This document shows, one piece after another, positions 28,840-36,321 of a DNA stretch of 48,869 nt. This DNA is from Aggregatibacter kilianii (lineage in GTDB: Bacteria > Pseudomonadota > Gammaproteobacteria > Enterobacterales > Pasteurellaceae). The translations under genes and the position numbers were made by a program. The notes beneath the pieces are model-generated. The model ran no database searches and was not told the DNA's origin. It saw only the letters and a list, made by a program, of their open reading frames with translations. The stretch is from assembly GCF_003129965.1 (NCBI RefSeq), contig NZ_NRCJ01000018.1:1-48869 (forward strand), in the 5' to 3' direction. Each line of letters opens with the position of its first letter. Within the stretch, counting starts at the first letter, position 1.

Positions 28840-29871
28840 ATGGCAGTTCGGCGTGACAAAACAAAAGGCAATAAATGGCTTGCGGAGTTCTACAAAGACG
28901 GCAAGCGCGTTCGCAAGTGGTTTTTAACCAAGGGCGAAGCCCTGCGTTTCTTCAATCAGCATAAATATGCTTCCGTTCAATTTTCCGATTCCGAAACGGT
29001 TTCCGTGTCTCTTGATGCGGACAAAACCGCCGCCCCGCCGTTAAGTTTTTTCGTGCAAGAATGGTTCGATTTGCACGGGCAAACGCTCAACGATGGCGCC
29101 GCACGATTGGAAAAGCTAAAAAACCTGTGCGCCCACCTTGGCGACCCGCCCGCCGCCGAATTTCGCCGCGAAGATTTCGCCGATTACCGAAAATTACGCC
29201 TTGCCGGGAAATTTTCCAAAGATCCGAATCGCCCACCGAAAGAAGCCACAATCAACCGCGAACACGCCTATTTGCGGGCGGTTTTTAACGAATTGAAGCG
29301 GCTCGGCAAGTGGGAAAGCGAAAACCCGTTAGAGGGAATAAGTGAATTTCGGGAAAAGGAAATCGAACTGGCGTATTTAACCGCCGACGAAATCCGCCGA
29401 CTGCTTGCGGAGTGCGATAATTCGCGCAATCGTGATTTGGGGTTGATTACGCGAATCTGCTTGGCAACCGGTGCGCGGTGGAGCGAAGCGGAGCAGTTAA
29501 AACAATCTCAAGTTATCCCTTACAAAATCACCTACATTAACACCAAAAGCAACCGCAACCGCACGATCCCGATCAGTCGTGAACTCTATGATATGTTGCC
29601 CAAACGACGCGGGCGACTTTTCGGCGACGCTTACGAAGCCTTTGAAAATGCCGTGGATCGCGCTTGTATTGATTTACCAAAAGGACAACTTACCCACGTT
29701 CTGCGGCATACGTTCGCAAGTCATTTTATGATGAACGGGGGAAATATCTTAGTACTGAAAGAAATTTTAGGACACTCTACGATCGAAATGACAATGCGCT
29801 ATTCTCATTTTGCCCCTTCGCACTTAGAAAGTGCGGTCAGTTTAAATCCGTTGGCTGTTAAAAGGGATTAG
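28840..29871 (+). CDS. int: Tyrosine-recombinase integrase (HP1 type)
   Basis: A 343-aa integrase. An N-terminal arm-binding domain, with Thr-Lys-Gly-Asn-Lys-Trp-Leu-Ala-Glu-Phe and a Lys/Arg-rich strand (residues 1-60), and a core-binding domain (about 65-160) precede the catalytic domain. The active residues are Arg213 (Gly-Ala-Arg-Trp), His286-Val-Leu-Arg289-His, His312 (Leu-Gly-His) and nucleophile Tyr321. Length agrees with HP1 integrase (337 aa). The gene sits next to the tRNA-Leu attachment site, as expected. An uptake signal lies near its 3' end (29829-29837). Confidence 0.95.
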   Translation: MAVRRDKTKGNKWLAEFYKDGKRVRKWFLTKGEALRFFNQHKYASVQFSDSETVSVSLDADKTAAPPLSFFVQEWFDLHGQTLNDGAARLEKLKNLCAHLGDPPAAEFRREDFADYRKLRLAGKFSKDPNRPPKEATINREHAYLRAVFNELKRLGKWESENPLEGISEFREKEIELAYLTADEIRRLLAECDNSRNRDLGLITRICLATGARWSEAEQLKQSQVIPYKITYINTKSNRNRTIPISRELYDMLPKRRGRLFGDAYEAFENAVDRACIDLPKGQLTHVLRHTFASHFMMNGGNILVLKEILGHSTIEMTMRYSHFAPSHLESAVSLNPLAVKRD

Positions 29872-29923
29872 TTCACAAAATCCCTTGGCTTTTAGTGGCT
29901 TTCCCTGTGGCTGTTCCGCTTTA

Positions 29924-29957
29924 TATTCGGTTGTATTCGTTCTTATTCGTCTATTCA
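29924..29957. repeat. Phased TATTCG repeats in the attachment-site arm
   Basis: TATTCG at 29924, 29934 and 29944 and TATTCA at 29952 form a 10-bp-phased array between integrase and the tRNA-Leu remnant. The middle unit TATTCGTTC equals the core of the repeats at the CI/Cox switch. It is probably the Cox (excisionase) binding region of the phage attachment site. Confidence 0.6.
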
Positions 29958-30000
29958 TTTCCGCGTAAAATCATTAACTTATTGATTCTCAAAATATTAA

Positions 30001-30077
30001 AAAGGTATTTAAAATCCCTCGCCTTTCGAGGCGTGCCAGTTCAAGTCTGGCCTCGGGCACCATTTAATAATACCTTT
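30001..30077 (+). other. Prophage attachment site with tRNA-Leu 3' remnant
   Basis: Bases 30007-30062 are the anticodon loop to CCA end of a tRNA-Leu, probably UAA: TTTAAAA loop, a variable arm with CCTTTCGAGG, the T arm GTTCAAGTC and the acceptor strand with CCA. The 5' half is missing and is replaced by phage DNA, so this is one prophage junction; the restored whole gene should lie at the other end. HP1 recombines within the anticodon stem-loop of tRNA-Leu. The inverted repeat AAAGGTATT/AATACCTTT flanks the remnant (30001-30009 and 30069-30077). Confidence 0.88.
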
Positions 30078-30114: not shown

Positions 30115-30190
30115 GGGTCGTTAGCTCAGTCGGTAGAGCAGCGGACTTTTAATCCGTTGGTCGAAGGTTCGAATCCTTCACGACCCACCA
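30115..30190 (+). tRNA. tRNA-Lys (anticodon UUU)
   Basis: The 76-base cloverleaf pairs the acceptor GGGTCGT with ACGACCC, followed by an encoded ACCA end. The D arm contains AGCTCAGTCGGTAGAGC, the anticodon loop is CTTTTAA (anticodon TTT), and the T arm is GGTTCGAATCC. It follows tRNA-Leu in the attachment region, as at the HP1 site of Haemophilus influenzae. Confidence 0.97.
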
Positions 30191-30785
30191 ACTTCCAAAT
30201 CAAATATCTAAAAACTTTTCACATACCCGCTAAGTAGCGATGCAGAGTAAAATAATCTCATTTTTGCATATAGCTTAGAATGTTTATTTCAAAAATATTC
30301 AACGTTATACGTTATACCTCTTGTGTAATCTAAGGCATGATAAGCAAAATAGTCTAGATAATTTGATCTAAAACAATAAAAACAGAAATAATACTTGACT
30401 CACTTGACAGCATTCTTTATTAGGCTTATTAGTATCCTACATAGAGGTAAGTCTATTCGACAATTAAAGCATCAATTAAACGGATTCAATAATTGATTAA
30501 ACTTTCGAAATGACTTACGCCATTCTTTATCTAAATATAAACCTTTAAGCAAAATATAAATCCACTTATCTAACTCAATCAAATATCAACGTTTTCTGAC
30601 TCACTTTGAAAAATGGAAGATTTCACCATAAAAAGGGAGAGAGATATGATAACAACATCAGCTTTATAGAATATTTGTGAATAATTACCCCACCTATTAT
30701 CTACACTTCAGAAGTCAGTAGCGTGGCAGTTTGTGTCTGCCAAAAGTGTAACTTATACAATAAAGATAAAGAATAGGAGCACAAA
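30191..30785 (+). promoter_or_regulatory. AT-rich 595-bp leader of the unknown island
   Basis: There is no credible gene of normal size. A strong sigma70 promoter is visible: TTGACA at 30404-30409, a 17-bp spacer and TATTAG at 30427-30432. A seven-codon ORF starts at 30647 (MITTSAL) after GGGAGAGAG. A hairpin TGGCAG/CTGCCA at 30724-30742 lies about 45 bases before the next gene. The stretch TGACT(T/C)AC...CATTCTTTAT occurs twice, near 30397 and 30511. If the promoter is used, the transcript has a leader of about 350 bases. Confidence 0.6.
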
Positions 30786-33700
30786 ATGAATCTTCAAGCG
30801 AATCAAACAACAAAACTGAATGCCTCAGAATTAGCGGCCTTGCATCGTAAAATGAATAATTGGCGAGGTCAGAAAAATAAGTTGATGGTATCAGATTTGA
30901 AACCCAAAGTTTTGGATAAAAAAATTAAAGATCCGGAACAAAAACTCTCCCGTAAAGAATTAAATCTACTTGTGGCCTATTTTGAAGCGATTGAAAAGGG
31001 CATCACAATTGATATTCCCGGCATAACGCCCACTGATCTTAAATTTGAGCAAATACTCTTTGATTCATATAGAACCGTGAATGCGCTTATCAAAGAATAT
31101 GACAAACAGATCACACCAAAATCTTCACTTATTCCAATAAAAGGAATCAGTAAAATATTGCAGGCTAAATTGCGTGAATTATATATTTACGACGTTGCCG
31201 CCCTGCTCTCGCGTGGGAGAACACAAAAAGATCGGGATAGCCTCGCCTCAAAATTAAAAGTTGATGTTAGTGAAGTGGAATCTTGGGTAAAACAAGCGGA
31301 TCTTTGGCGTGTTTCCGGAATGACCACCGATATTGCTTATTTACTTGTTATCAGCGGGGTGCGCTGTGTTGAAGATTTAGCGAGAGTTGATGCCAAGAAA
31401 ATTTTTCCGATTATTAAAGGAATTTCTGCGGTACAAACAGATTTTCAAGCCCCATCCTCTAAAGAAGAGATCCACCAGCTTATTAAAAATGCGCAAGATT
31501 TAGTCATCTATTCAGTTCGTAGTGAAAATTTAAGATTGCGCTCATTACCTGATTCTTTGGTAAATGCCATTAATACAATCAAAAATAGTGGTGATCCTAA
31601 CAACATGGATATGCAGGGTGTTGTTGAGTATATCCAAAACGATATGCTTTCTTCCTTAGCAGAATCTGACGGAAATAATTGGTATCAGGAGTTAGGCGAA
31701 GTACCATTACATCTGTTTAAAAATGATAAAAACATTTCTGAAATTGAGTTTATGACGACCGGTAAGGTCATTAAAAAAGGGCTTGATTTCCTTGATGATG
31801 TGCAATACTCCCTACCTTTACCAAACACACTAAGCGGAACCGTCTATATCAGAAGAAAAGACAGCACTGAGAAAAGAACGTTTGCCGGAGCAGAAGTTGA
31901 AATCAGCGGTATTGTCAGCCCAACCGAAGATCTAAAAGACTTAAATAAAAAATTATGTGCGGTAACGGATAGCCAAGGTAAATTTATTATCGCCTTGCCG
32001 GACAAATACAGCATTAAAGAAATTGTCACCATTTCTATTTCTCAAGGTCCGAAAAAGCAAGAGTTCGTTAAAAATGCGAGTGAAATTTTAGATTCCGTAA
32101 AAGAGCGTAAAAAATTAGATGACTTCTATCAACTAGATGCGCTAGGTGATGAAATTGATAAATTGACATTATTAATTGAACAAACGGAAAAAGAACAGCA
32201 GAAATTAATTGAACAAGCCGAAGGAAAACAAAAGAAATGGAATGACAAATCCTATAGTCAAAAATTGACTAGTTATCACCAAAAACTCGACGAATTGTCG
32301 AATAATTACGATAAGGCTGAAGCCAAACTGTTAAAAGAATGTGATGCCTTAACGGTTAAGATGGCGTTTGATAAGTTTCTCGCCTCCTGTAAATCGCTAA
32401 ATGCTAACTTAGAGGGAACAAATAACAATGCTCAAGAAGATGAAGGTTTTGTCATTATTGAAGAATTATTTAACGGTCAACGACTGGATTTAGAAACAGC
32501 TTTACCTAAAGTAAAACTGATGGGAAATGATGAGCATGTTATCCGTCTTGCAACGGATACTGCGCCGTCCAAAACCTATCGTTACAGTATGTTACAACGA
32601 CTTGTTGAGCCAAATATTTCTTCGTTAAATGGGCGGAAAAAATTAACCGCACCTGTTAGCATAATGAATTTCAAAGAGGCCTTATATACCACCCCGGATA
32701 GATATCCGCAGGCAACCTCATTGGGTATCGGTTATGTGCTGAATATGCACCAAGCATGGATACCGGATGGTTTTTCATTGGGTTCACTACTCTATTCGCT
32801 AGTTTTAGCTCCGGGTGAAGAACAGCGGCTGGTTGTTCGCGAGAATAAACAAAGCTATTCCATCATGAATGATTCGGAAAGTTCCGAGATGGGAAGAGAA
32901 AGCTACGAGCAAGGTCAATCTGATGACACTTTGGCTGCCTTTAATAATGCTATCGACCAAATGTCGAATGGATATTCCGATTATAACTACAATGCCTCAA
33001 GCGGGTCTTTTGGCGGCTCGCTTTTTGGCGGTATTTTTGGTACCGGTATGGGAATCGGATTGGGTTTATCAGGAGGGTATTCCCGAACCCAAGGGTATGG
33101 CTCATCCTCCGCCGGTCAACGTAATTCCCACAATGAAGTTTCAAATGCTGCACAAACTTTTCAACGCAATATTAAAAGTGCATCAAATCGAATTTCACAA
33201 GCGAAACGCATTAGCGTATCCATGGGAACAAGTGAAACCTCTAATTATGTTGCAACCAAAATTATCGCTAACCACAACCATTCACATACAATGACCGTGC
33301 AGTATTGGGAGGTGATGAGACGTTATAAATTGGAAAGCTGTATCGATAGTGTCGATTTAGTGCTCTTTGTACCGTTGCAATTGATTCACTTCTTACCTTC
33401 AGGAGAAAATTATCAATTAATGGAGGTGCATTCCTCGACCTTTAACAAAACTCGATTTAGCCAACGTTATGGTATGTTATTAAAATATGAACCGGCGCTA
33501 CGCTATGCCCTGCCATACCGTTATCGTAGAGGTTTGGAGCTGGTTAAGAAATATGCGGCATATCCACAATGGTCACTGGAAAATATCAATGATGATTCGC
33601 GCACCTTAGCCTTAACCTTTAGTGGCAATTTCCTCACATTTGATGATTTATCTGTCACACTGCGCCTAAAAAATGGTCGAGGTACTGTTGCCGGTGAAAT

Positions 33701-35090
33701 CGTTCACTATCCTCGAGCCAATATTCAGATTTTGGATATTTATGAAGGCAATAAAAGAAATTGCAGTACACGAAATGAAGTGCGACAAGCCATTCGAGAT
33801 GAACGCAATAAACAAGGTTCGGTTAAGGTCACCGTCTTATTTCACCTACCGTCTGATTTTGTTGATGATGATTTGGATTACATCCGCATTAAGCATTCTA
33901 TTGAGCCATTAAATTACACGCTGGAACATCATGGCGAATTAACGAAGGCAGAATCCAAAGCTTATGAGCTATACCTCGACCGAATTCTTGATTTGGCTAA
34001 AGATAATGATAATAGTCAACACGATAGAAGGGAGATCGCACACTACAAATCCTCTTTACCGGAAGCGTATGTTACGCCTCAGATTACCCTCTCTCCGGGA
34101 CATTTGAGAGCATTAGGCAATCCGACAATCCATAGCGTATCAGTTAATATGGAAAGCACCTCTAGAATTCAGGCAACACTGTCATATAGTGAGTTGAACT
34201 ATTCCACCTATATTAAACTCTCAACGGAAGAAAAAACGCTACGTTATTCAGAGTTCCAATTAATGGAAGAAACACTACAACATATAGCTTCAGAAACCTT
34301 GCGTTACTCACAAGCCGTATGGCAATCATTGAGTAGTGATGAACGTACTATGTTATTGGAGCAGTACACTATCGATATGAATTTTGACGAACTTCAAGAT
34401 TCAGACCAAAGTAAAAAGGAAAAAATAGATATACCTTTACTGAACTGCGTTAATGTTAAAAAACTTCTCGGTTTTTATGGTAACTGCATGCTATTGCCGT
34501 TTACGTATCCACAAAGCCTGGCTAAACGGTTGGGTAAAACAGCAGGGGAAATACAAGACGCTCTATATCGCTATCACACCAATAATTTCCGCGTTCCGAC
34601 CACGATCGTGTCTTTGCCAACCGACGGTATGATTGGAGAAGCGGTGTTGGGCGAAACCAATGTCAGCGAAGAAATTGATTTAACCCGTTTCTGGAACTGG
34701 CAAGACTCCCCAATTGATAAGATGGATATCAATAACCATTACTTAAACGACAAAGATTATTTATCGGAGAAAACAGTCAAAGATGATTTAACAGAGAAAA
34801 CCGTCAAAGATAAGAATGCATTAGGATTGCAAAGTGCACCGGAAGCGGCAACGCCTATGGAAACAAGTGTACTTTCATCCTTAATTAGCAGGCAATCTCC
34901 TGAATTCACTGATAGAGCAACGTTTGCAGAATTAAAAGAGTTATTGAATGCCAGTATGGAAAACGCCAAATCAGGGCGAGACAAGGTGATTGAAACCTCT
35001 GCAGAACTTGCTAAAGCAGCATTGGATTATGCCGGTAAAGTTAATGGAGGGGAGGGTGCAACCTCAAAAGAGAATAAATCTTCAAAGTAA
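30786..35090 (+). CDS. Giant protein of unknown function with helix-hairpin-helix and Ig-like regions
   Basis: A 1434-aa protein with TAGGAG ribosome site and no signal peptide. A helical N-terminus is followed by two helix-hairpin-helix-like units (about 116-211, DUF4332-like), an Ig/carboxypeptidase-regulatory-like beta domain (about 349-426) and a coiled coil (about 444-542). The most conserved-looking core includes Leu-Ala-Pro-Gly-Glu-Glu near 675, a Gly/Ser/Tyr-rich stretch (about 730-780) and Asn-His-Asn-His-Ser-His-x-Met-Thr-Val-Gln-Tyr-Trp-Glu near 829. A beta-rich region and a charged tail with a duplicated Glu-Lys-Thr-Val-Lys-Asp follow. I do not recognise the function; the 99-aa gene and possible large RNA downstream may act with it. 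Confidence 0.85.
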   Translation: MNLQANQTTKLNASELAALHRKMNNWRGQKNKLMVSDLKPKVLDKKIKDPEQKLSRKELNLLVAYFEAIEKGITIDIPGITPTDLKFEQILFDSYRTVNALIKEYDKQITPKSSLIPIKGISKILQAKLRELYIYDVAALLSRGRTQKDRDSLASKLKVDVSEVESWVKQADLWRVSGMTTDIAYLLVISGVRCVEDLARVDAKKIFPIIKGISAVQTDFQAPSSKEEIHQLIKNAQDLVIYSVRSENLRLRSLPDSLVNAINTIKNSGDPNNMDMQGVVEYIQNDMLSSLAESDGNNWYQELGEVPLHLFKNDKNISEIEFMTTGKVIKKGLDFLDDVQYSLPLPNTLSGTVYIRRKDSTEKRTFAGAEVEISGIVSPTEDLKDLNKKLCAVTDSQGKFIIALPDKYSIKEIVTISISQGPKKQEFVKNASEILDSVKERKKLDDFYQLDALGDEIDKLTLLIEQTEKEQQKLIEQAEGKQKKWNDKSYSQKLTSYHQKLDELSNNYDKAEAKLLKECDALTVKMAFDKFLASCKSLNANLEGTNNNAQEDEGFVIIEELFNGQRLDLETALPKVKLMGNDEHVIRLATDTAPSKTYRYSMLQRLVEPNISSLNGRKKLTAPVSIMNFKEALYTTPDRYPQATSLGIGYVLNMHQAWIPDGFSLGSLLYSLVLAPGEEQRLVVRENKQSYSIMNDSESSEMGRESYEQGQSDDTLAAFNNAIDQMSNGYSDYNYNASSGSFGGSLFGGIFGTGMGIGLGLSGGYSRTQGYGSSSAGQRNSHNEVSNAAQTFQRNIKSASNRISQAKRISVSMGTSETSNYVATKIIANHNHSHTMTVQYWEVMRRYKLESCIDSVDLVLFVPLQLIHFLPSGENYQLMEVHSSTFNKTRFSQRYGMLLKYEPALRYALPYRYRRGLELVKKYAAYPQWSLENINDDSRTLALTFSGNFLTFDDLSVTLRLKNGRGTVAGEIVHYPRANIQILDIYEGNKRNCSTRNEVRQAIRDERNKQGSVKVTVLFHLPSDFVDDDLDYIRIKHSIEPLNYTLEHHGELTKAESKAYELYLDRILDLAKDNDNSQHDRREIAHYKSSLPEAYVTPQITLSPGHLRALGNPTIHSVSVNMESTSRIQATLSYSELNYSTYIKLSTEEKTLRYSEFQLMEETLQHIASETLRYSQAVWQSLSSDERTMLLEQYTIDMNFDELQDSDQSKKEKIDIPLLNCVNVKKLLGFYGNCMLLPFTYPQSLAKRLGKTAGEIQDALYRYHTNNFRVPTTIVSLPTDGMIGEAVLGETNVSEEIDLTRFWNWQDSPIDKMDINNHYLNDKDYLSEKTVKDDLTEKTVKDKNALGLQSAPEAATPMETSVLSSLISRQSPEFTDRATFAELKELLNASMENAKSGRDKVIETSAELAKAALDYAGKVNGGEGATSKENKSSK

Positions 35091-35192
35091 AATGCTAGCT
35101 CATAACAGTGAAAATACGTTTAGCTATGATGTTTTTTGATGGTAGAAAATCTTATCAAGAACACCGAGCTATCCGAAATAAAGGAGTTTAAA

Positions 35193-35492
35193 ATGAATAT
35201 TGATAATGTGGTATTAAAAATCTTAGAGAGCGAGATATCGCCGGAGATGCAAGAACTTAAGAAATTAATTTTAAGAAGAATTGCGACCGAGGCGGACATT
35301 AAACCGTCGCGAATACCGGCGCCGTTAAATATCACCCAAATCGGGGGATATATTAACTTGATGATGAAATTAGATAAGCAACAACAAAAAAGAATTTTAG
35401 AGACGCAACAGCAAAAAACGGAGTATCAGTCTATGCTGGAGCAAACTCTAGCCTCTATTCTTGGTCTTCCAATGCAAACGTCGAAAGAGTAA
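35193..35492 (+). CDS. Small helical partner of the giant protein (99 aa)
   Basis: A 99-aa protein that is helical and rich in Gln/Lys/Leu, with a central Pro-Ser-Arg-Ile-Pro-Ala-Pro-Leu-Asn-Ile-Thr-Gln-Ile-Gly-Gly-Tyr-Ile segment. I chose the start at 35193 because AAGGAG lies seven bases before it; the longer frame from 35136 (TTG) has no ribosome site. It follows the giant gene after 102 bases in the same direction without an obvious terminator between, so the two are probably co-transcribed. No family recognised; a chaperone or subunit role is a guess from size and position. Confidence 0.7.
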   Translation: MNIDNVVLKILESEISPEMQELKKLILRRIATEADIKPSRIPAPLNITQIGGYINLMMKLDKQQQKRILETQQQKTEYQSMLEQTLASILGLPMQTSKE

Positions 35493-35509
35493 ATCGCTTT
35501 GGTATCGTG

Positions 35510-36203
35510 AACTTAAACGGCGGATAAACATTGTTCTTCTGCGAGCAATGAATATTTGTCGAATAAGTCACAAGGTATCCGTAGCCTTTAACGAGAGGTG
35601 CTTTTGGCATCGGTCTGCAATGGGTGAAAAATGTATCGTTAACACGAAAGAATCGGCAATGCGAAAGGTAATGGAACTCGGTCTCTGATCCAGATTAGGG
35701 CTCGAGGAAAACACTATCCTAGGATGGAAAGGCAAGTGAACGAGTAATCTACTCTAGCCAAGCCGGAATCAAGAAGGAAAACATTTGACCGCAAGTGATG
35801 AAGCTCGGTCGGTAAAGATCCCGCGATAGGGCGTCGACTGACACCTACCGGGAAGATAAACCCGACCTGAGGACAAAACAAACGGAAGGATGAATTTCTT
35901 GGAGAGGAAAGTAAGGCGACAGAAGGTGAAAGGGAACGCGTCAAGGCGGAATCTCAGGATTTAAGGAACGAAAGTTTCAGCTGCCGGAGAACGGTAGCAA
36001 TTACACGCATCACCGGATACGTCCCATTTGTGGCGTTCTGCTTTTAGCAAAAAGCAAGAATGAACGGAAAGGCTTAGGCAAGGTCAACTTGGCAATCAGG
36101 TCTGGCATTGTTGGATGGGCATTACTCCTAACGTATTGGAATACCATGAATTCACCTTCGGGTGAACCTGAACCGCGTCGAATTCGGCGCGGTTCTCTTT
36201 TTT
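35510..36203 (+). ncRNA. Candidate large structured noncoding RNA
   Basis: About 690 bases lack a plausible ORF on either strand yet are not AT-rich spacer. Visible hairpins include GACCG/CGGTC (35787-35810), GGAAC-GAAA-GTTTC with a GNRA loop (35965-35978), GCTGCCG-GAGAA-CGGTAGC (35980-35998), GTTC-N-GCTTTT/AAAAGC...GAAC (35035+1000 to 36065) and TTCACC-TTCG-GGTGAA with a UUCG loop (36151-36166). A strong terminator ends it. Purine-rich joining strands with AGGAAA, GGAAC and GAAAGG recall large ornate RNAs such as GOLLD or ROOL, which favour tRNA-linked and prophage sites, but I cannot match it to either. The 5' end is not determined; it may be processed from the operon transcript. Confidence 0.5.
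36170..36203 (+). terminator. Strong intrinsic terminator of the island
   Basis: A perfect eight-base stem GAACCGCG/CGCGGTTC (36170-36177 and 36188-36195) with a ten-base loop is followed by CTC and six T. It points rightward and ends any transcript of the giant gene, the small gene and the RNA-like region. Confidence 0.9.
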
Positions 36204-36321
36204 AGCAAGTGCACGATTTTCAGATTCTCAGCCTTTTCACAAGATCAAACATAGACTTTCTATCCACCTCTTTTTAATTACTAAAAGCAATTTCACCCAT
36301 TGTTTTTGCAAATTAACTTTA

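What the first reader, a model, noticed from the sequence alone, without database searches (positions are those of the whole stretch)
30191..36203. tRNA-linked island: giant gene, small partner and RNA-like region as one unit
Seen: a strong promoter (30404-30432), a long leader, a 1434-codon gene, a 99-codon gene, about 690 bp of noncoding structured-looking DNA and one strong terminator, all reading the same way, directly behind the tRNA-Leu/tRNA-Lys integration hotspot. Inference: this is an accessory protein-plus-RNA system carried as a single transcription unit. None of the three parts matches a system I know.
Basis: partly seen in the sequence, partly recalled or inferred. Interest (0 to 1): 0.82.

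Follow-up and report, generated by a model that had tools for sequence, protein, structure and literature searches.

The report
Mobile giant-gene operon with noncoding tail
A rare gene block beside a tRNA gene holds a giant protein gene, a small partner gene that goes with it almost everywhere, and a long noncoding tail kept only in one branch of its relatives; no database we searched names this combination and its job is unknown, though it may carry wall-cutting enzymes used between microbes.

Summary
The unit is real and is gained or lost as a block: one species of the genus has an empty site (tRNA-Lys 241 bp from the peroxidase gene), the window has 6.2 kb there, two species keep a decayed copy. 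The giant protein belongs to an unnamed family found in many bacterial phyla and some archaea; only a DUF4332 domain is recognised. The small gene is a true partner, present in 59 of 60 relatives with room for it. The noncoding 3' stretch is no accident: 11 of 23 close-class loci (2 more doubtful) have 358-899 nt of noncoding DNA between the small gene and a terminator, and its presence follows the giant's tree (3 changes over 21 rows). In two Porphyromonadaceae it is 67% identical while four-fold sites are 46%. But 8 of 23 lack it, tails of different clades share no sequence, several fold no better than shuffles, and pair changes do not exceed shuffles. So the protein pair is near-obligate and the noncoding part clade-specific. 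Amidases and other enzymes recur as extra genes, which suggests an effector-carrying role (inference). Transcription, RNA abundance and function are untested.

The parts
30115..30190 (+). tRNA-Lys, left neighbour of the insertion site
   Evidence: ARAGORN and Rfam
30202..36262 (+). block missing from relative G004, i.e. the extent of the accessory unit
   Evidence: blastn of the window against G004: matches stop at 30201 and resume at 36263
30202..30785 (+). A+T-rich leader (30% GC) with a promoter-like TTGACA-17-TATTAG at 30405-30433 that is not beyond chance
   Evidence: sequence, scan, GC of 30191-30785
30786..35090 (+). giant gene, 1434 aa, unnamed family
   Evidence: ORF; relatives at 77 loci; no Pfam/NCBIfam family for the core in 60 members except one weak Pfam match in one member
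31143..31499 (+). DUF4332 domain (residues 120-238)
   Evidence: Pfam PF14229, E 4.4e-18, 66.1 bits against a cut-off of 23.2
32502..35051 (+). core shared with distant relatives (residues 573-1422), with a glycine-rich stretch and motifs such as NHNH...TVQYWEV and RFWNWQDSP
   Evidence: tblastn to plasmid records, alignments A1 and A2
35193..35492 (+). small partner gene, 99 aa (motif PSRIPAPLNITQIGGYINL)
   Evidence: tblastn hit in 59 of 60 relatives with at least 1500 nt downstream; alignment A3
35493..36169 (+). noncoding tail; in the predicted fold a 5' part (to about 35908) and a 3' part (from about 35909)
   Evidence: codon score; fold; 3' part kept in the relics of G002 and G006
36170..36203 (+). 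intrinsic terminator
   Evidence: 11-pair stem and T run, strongest site of the stretch

Best explanation
A horizontally moved, self-contained operon. SHOWN: a giant protein of an unnamed family is nearly always followed by a small partner gene; in one part of the family, which includes this copy, the pair is followed by a fast-changing noncoding element of about 360-900 nt that ends in a terminator and is constrained in the one species pair where this could be measured; the whole block is present or absent at a tRNA-linked site. INFERRED: the tail is transcribed with the genes, as a long 3' untranslated region or as an RNA cut from it. INFERRED, weaker: the giant protein is a non-secreted scaffold or shell, with the small protein as its assembly partner, that holds enzymes acting on cell walls or surfaces (amidase, NlpC/P60-like, transglutaminase-like, neprosin) encoded beside it or fused to it in relatives; it would be set free by lysis or an unknown route and used against other microbes in dense communities. 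In this clade the RNA would be a part or a regulator of that assembly. The window's own copy has no recognisable cargo gene.
For: Pairing 59 of 60. Block absence in G004 and relics in G002 and G006. Tails in 11 of 23 close-class loci, 2 more doubtful; codon scores noncoding; 3 changes on the tree. Tail 67% identical (627 columns) between L027 and L126 against 46% at 424 four-fold sites, 52% in the leader, 45% beyond the terminator and 44% for shuffled tail. Consensus folds on the sense strand below column shuffles: z -5.3 and -4.5 with terminators, -2.5 and -2.9 without. Enzyme genes beside the pair: Amidase_2 above Pfam's cut-off in L035 and L040, Transglut_core at the cut-off in L036, NLPC_P60 below the cut-off in L031, neprosin in 2 of 36 neighbours and beside L020, DUF2272 inside the L022 giant. 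No N-terminal hydrophobic stretch in 9 of 9 giants looked at.
Against: 8 of 23 close-class loci lack a tail. Tails of different clades share no sequence; the RNA model of this tail finds no kin among 20 sources beyond its own three rows. Single-sequence fold scores are unremarkable in several tails: L030 +3.3, L035 +0.5, L026 -0.3, L043 -1.1, L034 -1.5. Two-sided pair changes do not exceed shuffles. Coding segments of the same species pair reach z -1.8, and the antisense strand of the window's 5' part scores about as low as the sense strand (-2.2 and -2.6). Most neighbour genes in the survey are unrelated to each other. Two non-giant proteins do have a hydrophobic N-terminus. No expression, binding or particle data.
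Confidence: 0.4

Rival explanations
1. A two-protein operon of unknown trade with a long 3' untranslated region that only controls its own mRNA (stability, decay, termination); the RNA has no partner role.
For: Tail always lies last before the terminator in the 11 clear loci; no shared sequence or proven structure between clades; the pair works without it in other clades.
Against: Length of 358-899 nt is long for a 3' untranslated region (my judgement); constraint over most of the tail in the Porphyromonadaceae pair. No pairing with the leader beyond shuffles in the window.
Confidence: 0.35
2. The tail is the decayed C-terminal half of the long second gene (310-340 aa) of the broad class: 99 aa plus about 230 codons would give that length.
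For: The lengths agree.
Against: A profile of that C-terminal region (28 rows) finds nothing in six frames of 13 tails (best E 0.4), while two true members score E below 1e-78; tail under constraint with indels that are not multiples of three.
Confidence: 0.03
3. The giant is a cell-surface or adhesion protein of the community-dwelling host, and the neighbouring enzymes remodel the host's own wall or surface.
For: LRR_4 and Big_2 repeats in some giants, S-layer-homology proteins upstream of L029.
Against: No signal peptide or membrane stretch by hydropathy in 9 of 9 giants looked at (no dedicated predictor was available).
Confidence: 0.15
4. An anti-phage or RNA-guided defence system.
For: Sporadic accessory distribution next to a tRNA.
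Against: No PADLOC match of either window protein; no nuclease, helicase or RT domain by Pfam.
Confidence: 0.07

Closest known systems
OLE RNA with OapA (Bacillota)
   Same: Large noncoding RNA of about 600 nt encoded immediately beside the gene of a protein of formerly unknown function (PMC11332333, passages).
   Different: No Rfam match to OLE; OapA is a small membrane protein, while this giant has no membrane stretch by hydropathy; OLE is well conserved in sequence, these tails are not alike between clades.
ROOL and GOLLD RNAs
   Same: Size class, occurrence near tRNA genes (PMC12286853, passages), many hosts from rumen and gut.
   Different: No Rfam match; those are described from phages and prophages, whereas giant-gene relatives were not found in the phage and viral collections; here a protein pair accompanies the element.
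Polymorphic toxin / effector-carrying systems (PMC3482391, search listing only)
   Same: A constant large carrier with changing enzyme domains or genes beside it, among them peptidoglycan amidases.
   Different: No secretion signal seen, no known trafficking domain; the small gene is a conserved partner rather than a variable immunity gene; no toxin module recognised in the window.
Type III toxin-antitoxin (protein plus RNA; recalled, no call)
   Same: Protein gene and RNA element in one unit.
   Different: The RNA antitoxins are arrays of short tandem repeats as I recall; no tandem repeat in 35480-36230. The protein is 1434 aa with no endoribonuclease family match.

Membership tests
DUF4332 (Pfam PF14229), as a domain of the giant | profile match above Pfam's cut-off | tested here: met
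   66.1 bits, cut-off 23.2; it covers 119 of 1434 residues only
OLE, ROOL, GOLLD and every other Rfam 15 family | covariance-model match of the tail | tested here: not met
   only tRNA matches at gathering level in the window and in 14 relatives' loci; permissive scans of the window, L127 and L032 tails gave only matches far below the cut-offs
OLE ribonucleoprotein | OapA-type membrane protein partner | tested here: not met
   neither window protein has a Pfam match other than DUF4332 with E below 0.1; no hydrophobic stretch in the giant; the small protein was not run through the hydropathy script
Type III toxin-antitoxin | tandem repeats in the RNA | tested here: not met
   none found in 35480-36230 at score 30
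PADLOC defence systems | profile match of a window protein | tested here: not met
   0 families for both proteins at E up to 1
Effector-carrying (polymorphic) systems | variable toxic enzyme genes or domains with a constant carrier | tested here: inconclusive
   enzymes recur in some relatives but no toxicity or delivery can be tested here, and the window copy has none
Contractile injection systems / phage tails | sheath, tube and baseplate genes nearby | tested here: inconclusive
   none among the 25 families shown of 40 found in 36 adjacent genes; no structure comparison possible

The most novel reading that the evidence does not exclude
The tail is the structural RNA of a ribonucleoprotein device: giant and small protein assemble on or around their own operon's RNA into a particle that carries wall-cutting enzymes. 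The RNA part was gained or kept in one clade and co-evolves quickly with its own giant protein, which would explain constraint between near relatives and no sequence likeness between clades.
Probability: 0.12. Interest if true: 0.92.

Novelty: categorically new. Interest (0 to 1): 0.6.

Why it matters
A giant-plus-small protein pair that occurs from archaea to actinobacteria, alphaproteobacteria and gut anaerobes, with a core that has no Pfam or NCBIfam family in 60 members (one weak match in one member), is a sizeable blind spot. If the tail is a working RNA, it is a large bacterial RNA with an obvious candidate protein partner, so its role could be tested by a plain pull-down; for ROOL no protein partner is known (PMC12286853, passages). 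The pair L027/L126 and the tail-less sister clade give a ready comparative system.

Tried and rejected
Rejected or without result: (1) Tail as a known RNA: see membership test. (2) Tail as pseudogene of the long second gene. (3) Tail-leader base pairing: window -142.4 against a shuffle mean of -145.4 (sd 8.0), L027 -160.6 against -147.5 (sd 7.3). (4) tRNA-like element as a shared trait: L127's tail has a 68-nt cloverleaf-like fold, but T-arm-like motifs over 13 tails are not beyond shuffles (1 seen; 32 of 300 shuffle sets reach that), ARAGORN finds no gene, and the L032 candidate folds otherwise. (5) A common sequence profile for tails: none beyond the pairs L027/L126 and L031/L033. (6) RNA model R1 of the window's 3' part: among 20 sources only the three sequences it was built from (default filters); 2 of 295 genomes of the order, G000 and G006, G002 not being among those drawn as far as the list shows. 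(7) Tail DNA in plasmids, phages and E. coli genomes: no match; an 18-base pattern in viral contigs: none. (8) Solved structures by sequence: no convincing match. (9) Second-protein alignment against PHROGs: 4 of 32 rows match phrog_16236, which has no function name; not followed up. (10) Literature: 'DUF4332' occurs in one paper of the library, on heliorhodopsin (listing and start of abstract); some searches gave listings in which I saw nothing on this family. That is not proof that it is undescribed.

Rows set aside and judgement calls. 17 of 77 loci had under 1500 nt behind the giant and were left out of the pairing count; the one miss is L101. 7 of 66 candidate cores were left out of A2. 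Of 45 neighbour genes listed, 36 went into A4 and 5 had been scanned; one from L028, one from L054 and two from L091 were not scanned. Tails, 23 close-class loci looked at: 11 with tail (window, L026, L027, L126, L127, L030, L031, L033, L034, L035, L043), 2 doubtful (L032, L091), 8 without (L028, L036, L037, L038, L039, L040, L047, L077), 2 undecided (L041, L088). L025, L029, L042 and L053 end too soon. L032 was labelled 'tail' in the tree test, L091 was not in the tree. Tail ends: by script for ten of the 13; for L026, L027 and L126 I placed the end by eye, where the script gave other sites (997; 38 and 469; 779). The script also gave earlier, weaker sites in L031 (73) and L032 (107, 512) that I passed over. 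Codon scores: the tail's best window stays below the giant's fifth percentile in 11 of 13 loci, not in L032 and L033.
Full report
WHAT IS THERE. The window is contig C9 of a 2.69-Mb genome. Between tRNA-Lys (30115-30190) and a peroxidase-type gene (ATG 36394; so named from its sequence, not from a family search) stand an A+T-rich leader, a 1434-aa gene, a 99-aa gene with an AGGAG in front of its ATG, about 680 nt without a credible ORF, and a strong terminator. Of the plus-strand terminator-like sites in the stretch, the one at 36170-36195 is the strongest; weaker ones lie inside both genes and at 35529 and 36019 in the tail. tRNA-Leu is represented only by its last 56 nt, behind a phage integrase gene; I read this as an attachment end of a prophage that is separate from the unit.

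GAIN AND LOSS AS A BLOCK. All nine genomes held for the genus have the peroxidase gene. I looked at the site in the other eight. G004 is empty: tRNA-Lys and the gene are 241 bp apart, and window 30202-36262 has no counterpart. G003 has 558 bp and G005 2.7 kb of other DNA there. G007 and G008 show only 45- and 39-bp matches near the tRNA, and G001 none upstream of the gene. G002 and G006 hold relics: a 200-bp piece of the giant gene (72-74% identical) and the 3' 300 bp of the tail (82%). The relics show that the unit was in the genus earlier; they do not show that the RNA still works there. In the family, 2 of 139 other genomes have the tail (both are these relics; a third match, to G149, covers 26 bases), and no other intact giant was found. 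The giant is 39% GC, the rest of the window 46-47%.

THE PROTEINS. The giant's only named part is DUF4332. One scan of species genomes gave 158 relatives, of which 77 loci were returned. 21 of them are 40-55% identical in the core and nearest to the window, in Bacteroidia, Fibrobacter, Clostridia and an archaeal MAG; one Neisseriaceae locus is partial. Many come from rumen or other animal sources by their titles. The rest, near 30%, are actinobacteria, alphaproteobacteria, planctomycetes, Gemmatimonadota, archaea and others. 25 of 72,556 plasmid records carry a relative; the phage and viral collections gave none. Within groups the gene is rare: 3 of 38, 4 of 80 (one of them an N-terminal match only), 2 of 399 and 1 of 297 genomes, each count including the centre. 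Of 60 loci with at least 1500 nt behind the giant, 59 have the small gene within 4.5 kb. In the broad class the small gene's motif is part of a second protein of roughly 240-530 aa, most often 310-340. The pair is therefore real and old.

THE TAIL. Of 23 close-class loci, 11 (with the window) have 358-899 nt between the small gene and a terminator; 2 are doubtful, 8 have none, 2 are undecided. By codon use of the locus's own giant gene, the median score of each of 13 candidate tails is near that of shuffled sequence, and the best window stays below the giant's fifth percentile in 11 of 13. On a tree of 31 cores (quick method; 8 forks unsupported) tail state needs 3 changes over 21 labelled rows, and a clade of 8 rows with SH-aLRT 100 is tail-less in all 6 labelled rows. 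No label shuffle was run. The strongest evidence is P. canoris (L027) against another member of its family (L126): tail 67.0% identical over 627 columns, four-fold sites 46.0% (424), leader 52.1%, beyond the terminator 45.4%, shuffled tail 43.9%. Tail indels are not multiples of three. So in this pair the tail is constrained, and not as coding sequence. Other gaps between ORFs of 100 aa or more in 11 tail loci have a median of 60 nt; 15 of 117 reach 358 nt, so long gaps exist elsewhere too.

STRUCTURE OF THE TAIL. Evidence is mixed. For: window whole tail z -3.7; window 3' part with two relics z -5.3 sense, -2.0 antisense, or -2.5 and -0.3 before the 3' hairpins, with +0.9 for a coding control of the same genomes; the L027/L126 pair -4.5 sense, -2.1 antisense, or -2.9 and +0.9 without terminator; single sequences L127 -5.1, L126 -3.8, L027 -3.7, L031 -2.0. 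Against: L030 +3.3, L035 +0.5, L026 -0.3, L043 -1.1, L034 -1.5 (12 shuffles each); the window's 5' part is as low on the antisense strand (-2.2) as on the sense strand (-2.6); coding segments of the L027/L126 pair range from -1.8 to +1.2, the first 450 nt of the tail -2.8; two-sided pair changes are 20 against a shuffle mean of 16.9, and 1 against 2.0; tails of different clades cannot be aligned, and the RNA model finds no kin. A recurring, constrained noncoding element is shown; one RNA family is not.

HOW IT MAY WORK. In some relatives extra genes stand within or beside the unit: Amidase_2 in L035 (between the two genes) and L040 (behind the small gene), a transglutaminase-like domain at cut-off in L036, a sub-threshold NlpC/P60 match in L031, DUF2272 inside the archaeal L022 giant, neprosin in 2 of 36 neighbours and beside L020. 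By eye only, lysozyme-, C39- and pore-former-like stretches occur in L031, L041, L043, L037 and L077. By hydropathy 9 of 9 giants lack an N-terminal hydrophobic stretch; of 14 other proteins two (in L043 and L023) have one. A scaffold without signal peptide and with wall enzymes suggests something set free by lysis or by an unknown route. This remains inference: most neighbours are unrelated genes and the window copy has no cargo gene. Whether the RNA is a part, a regulator or a mere 3' untranslated region is open.

NOVELTY. No family tested fits: Rfam has no match for the tail, PADLOC none for the two window proteins, PHROGs only weak ones (E 0.13 or more), while 4 of 32 second proteins match an unnamed PHROG. 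The likeness to OLE and OapA (PMC11332333, passages) is one of layout. I rate the combination as categorically new because no known kind could be assigned; if the tail proves to be a plain 3' untranslated region, what remains is an undescribed protein family, and the rating should drop.

Noticed in passing
window 28840-30062: Phage integrase gene followed by the last 56 nt of tRNA-Leu, whose 5' part is not in the window: looks like an attachment end of a prophage that fills the left part of the window.
   Followed up: partly
L127, minus strand, about 80-150 nt into the tail: A 68-nt stretch folds as a cloverleaf with a 7-bp acceptor-like stem and a T-arm-like hairpin; ARAGORN does not call it.
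   Followed up: partly
L028 1-11728: An archaeal MAG contig has two giant genes in a row and one small gene.
   Followed up: no
L017 4401-10636: In another genome of the family (G025) a 349-aa protein resembling the DUF4332 part of the giant sits in a different gene row with a patatin-like protein and several paralogous small proteins (names by eye).
   Followed up: no
L031 8731-9023 and L033 12099-12331: Two blocks in the same order are 81% and 74% identical between the tails of a Bacillota MAG and a Bacteroidetes MAG, a further hint of constraint in the tail.
   Followed up: no
L013 and L014, tRNA-Lys to peroxidase gene: Between the two relic species the tRNA-side half is almost identical while the tail half and the stretch behind it differ much more, as if the tRNA side had been exchanged recently.
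   Followed up: no
L029 1050-6573: Two S-layer-homology proteins with LRR (one also with Ig-like Big_2) repeats lie upstream of a giant gene.
   Followed up: no
L091 6860-10681: The giant gene of this Bacteroidales contig is split over two ORFs, so it is probably broken.
   Followed up: no
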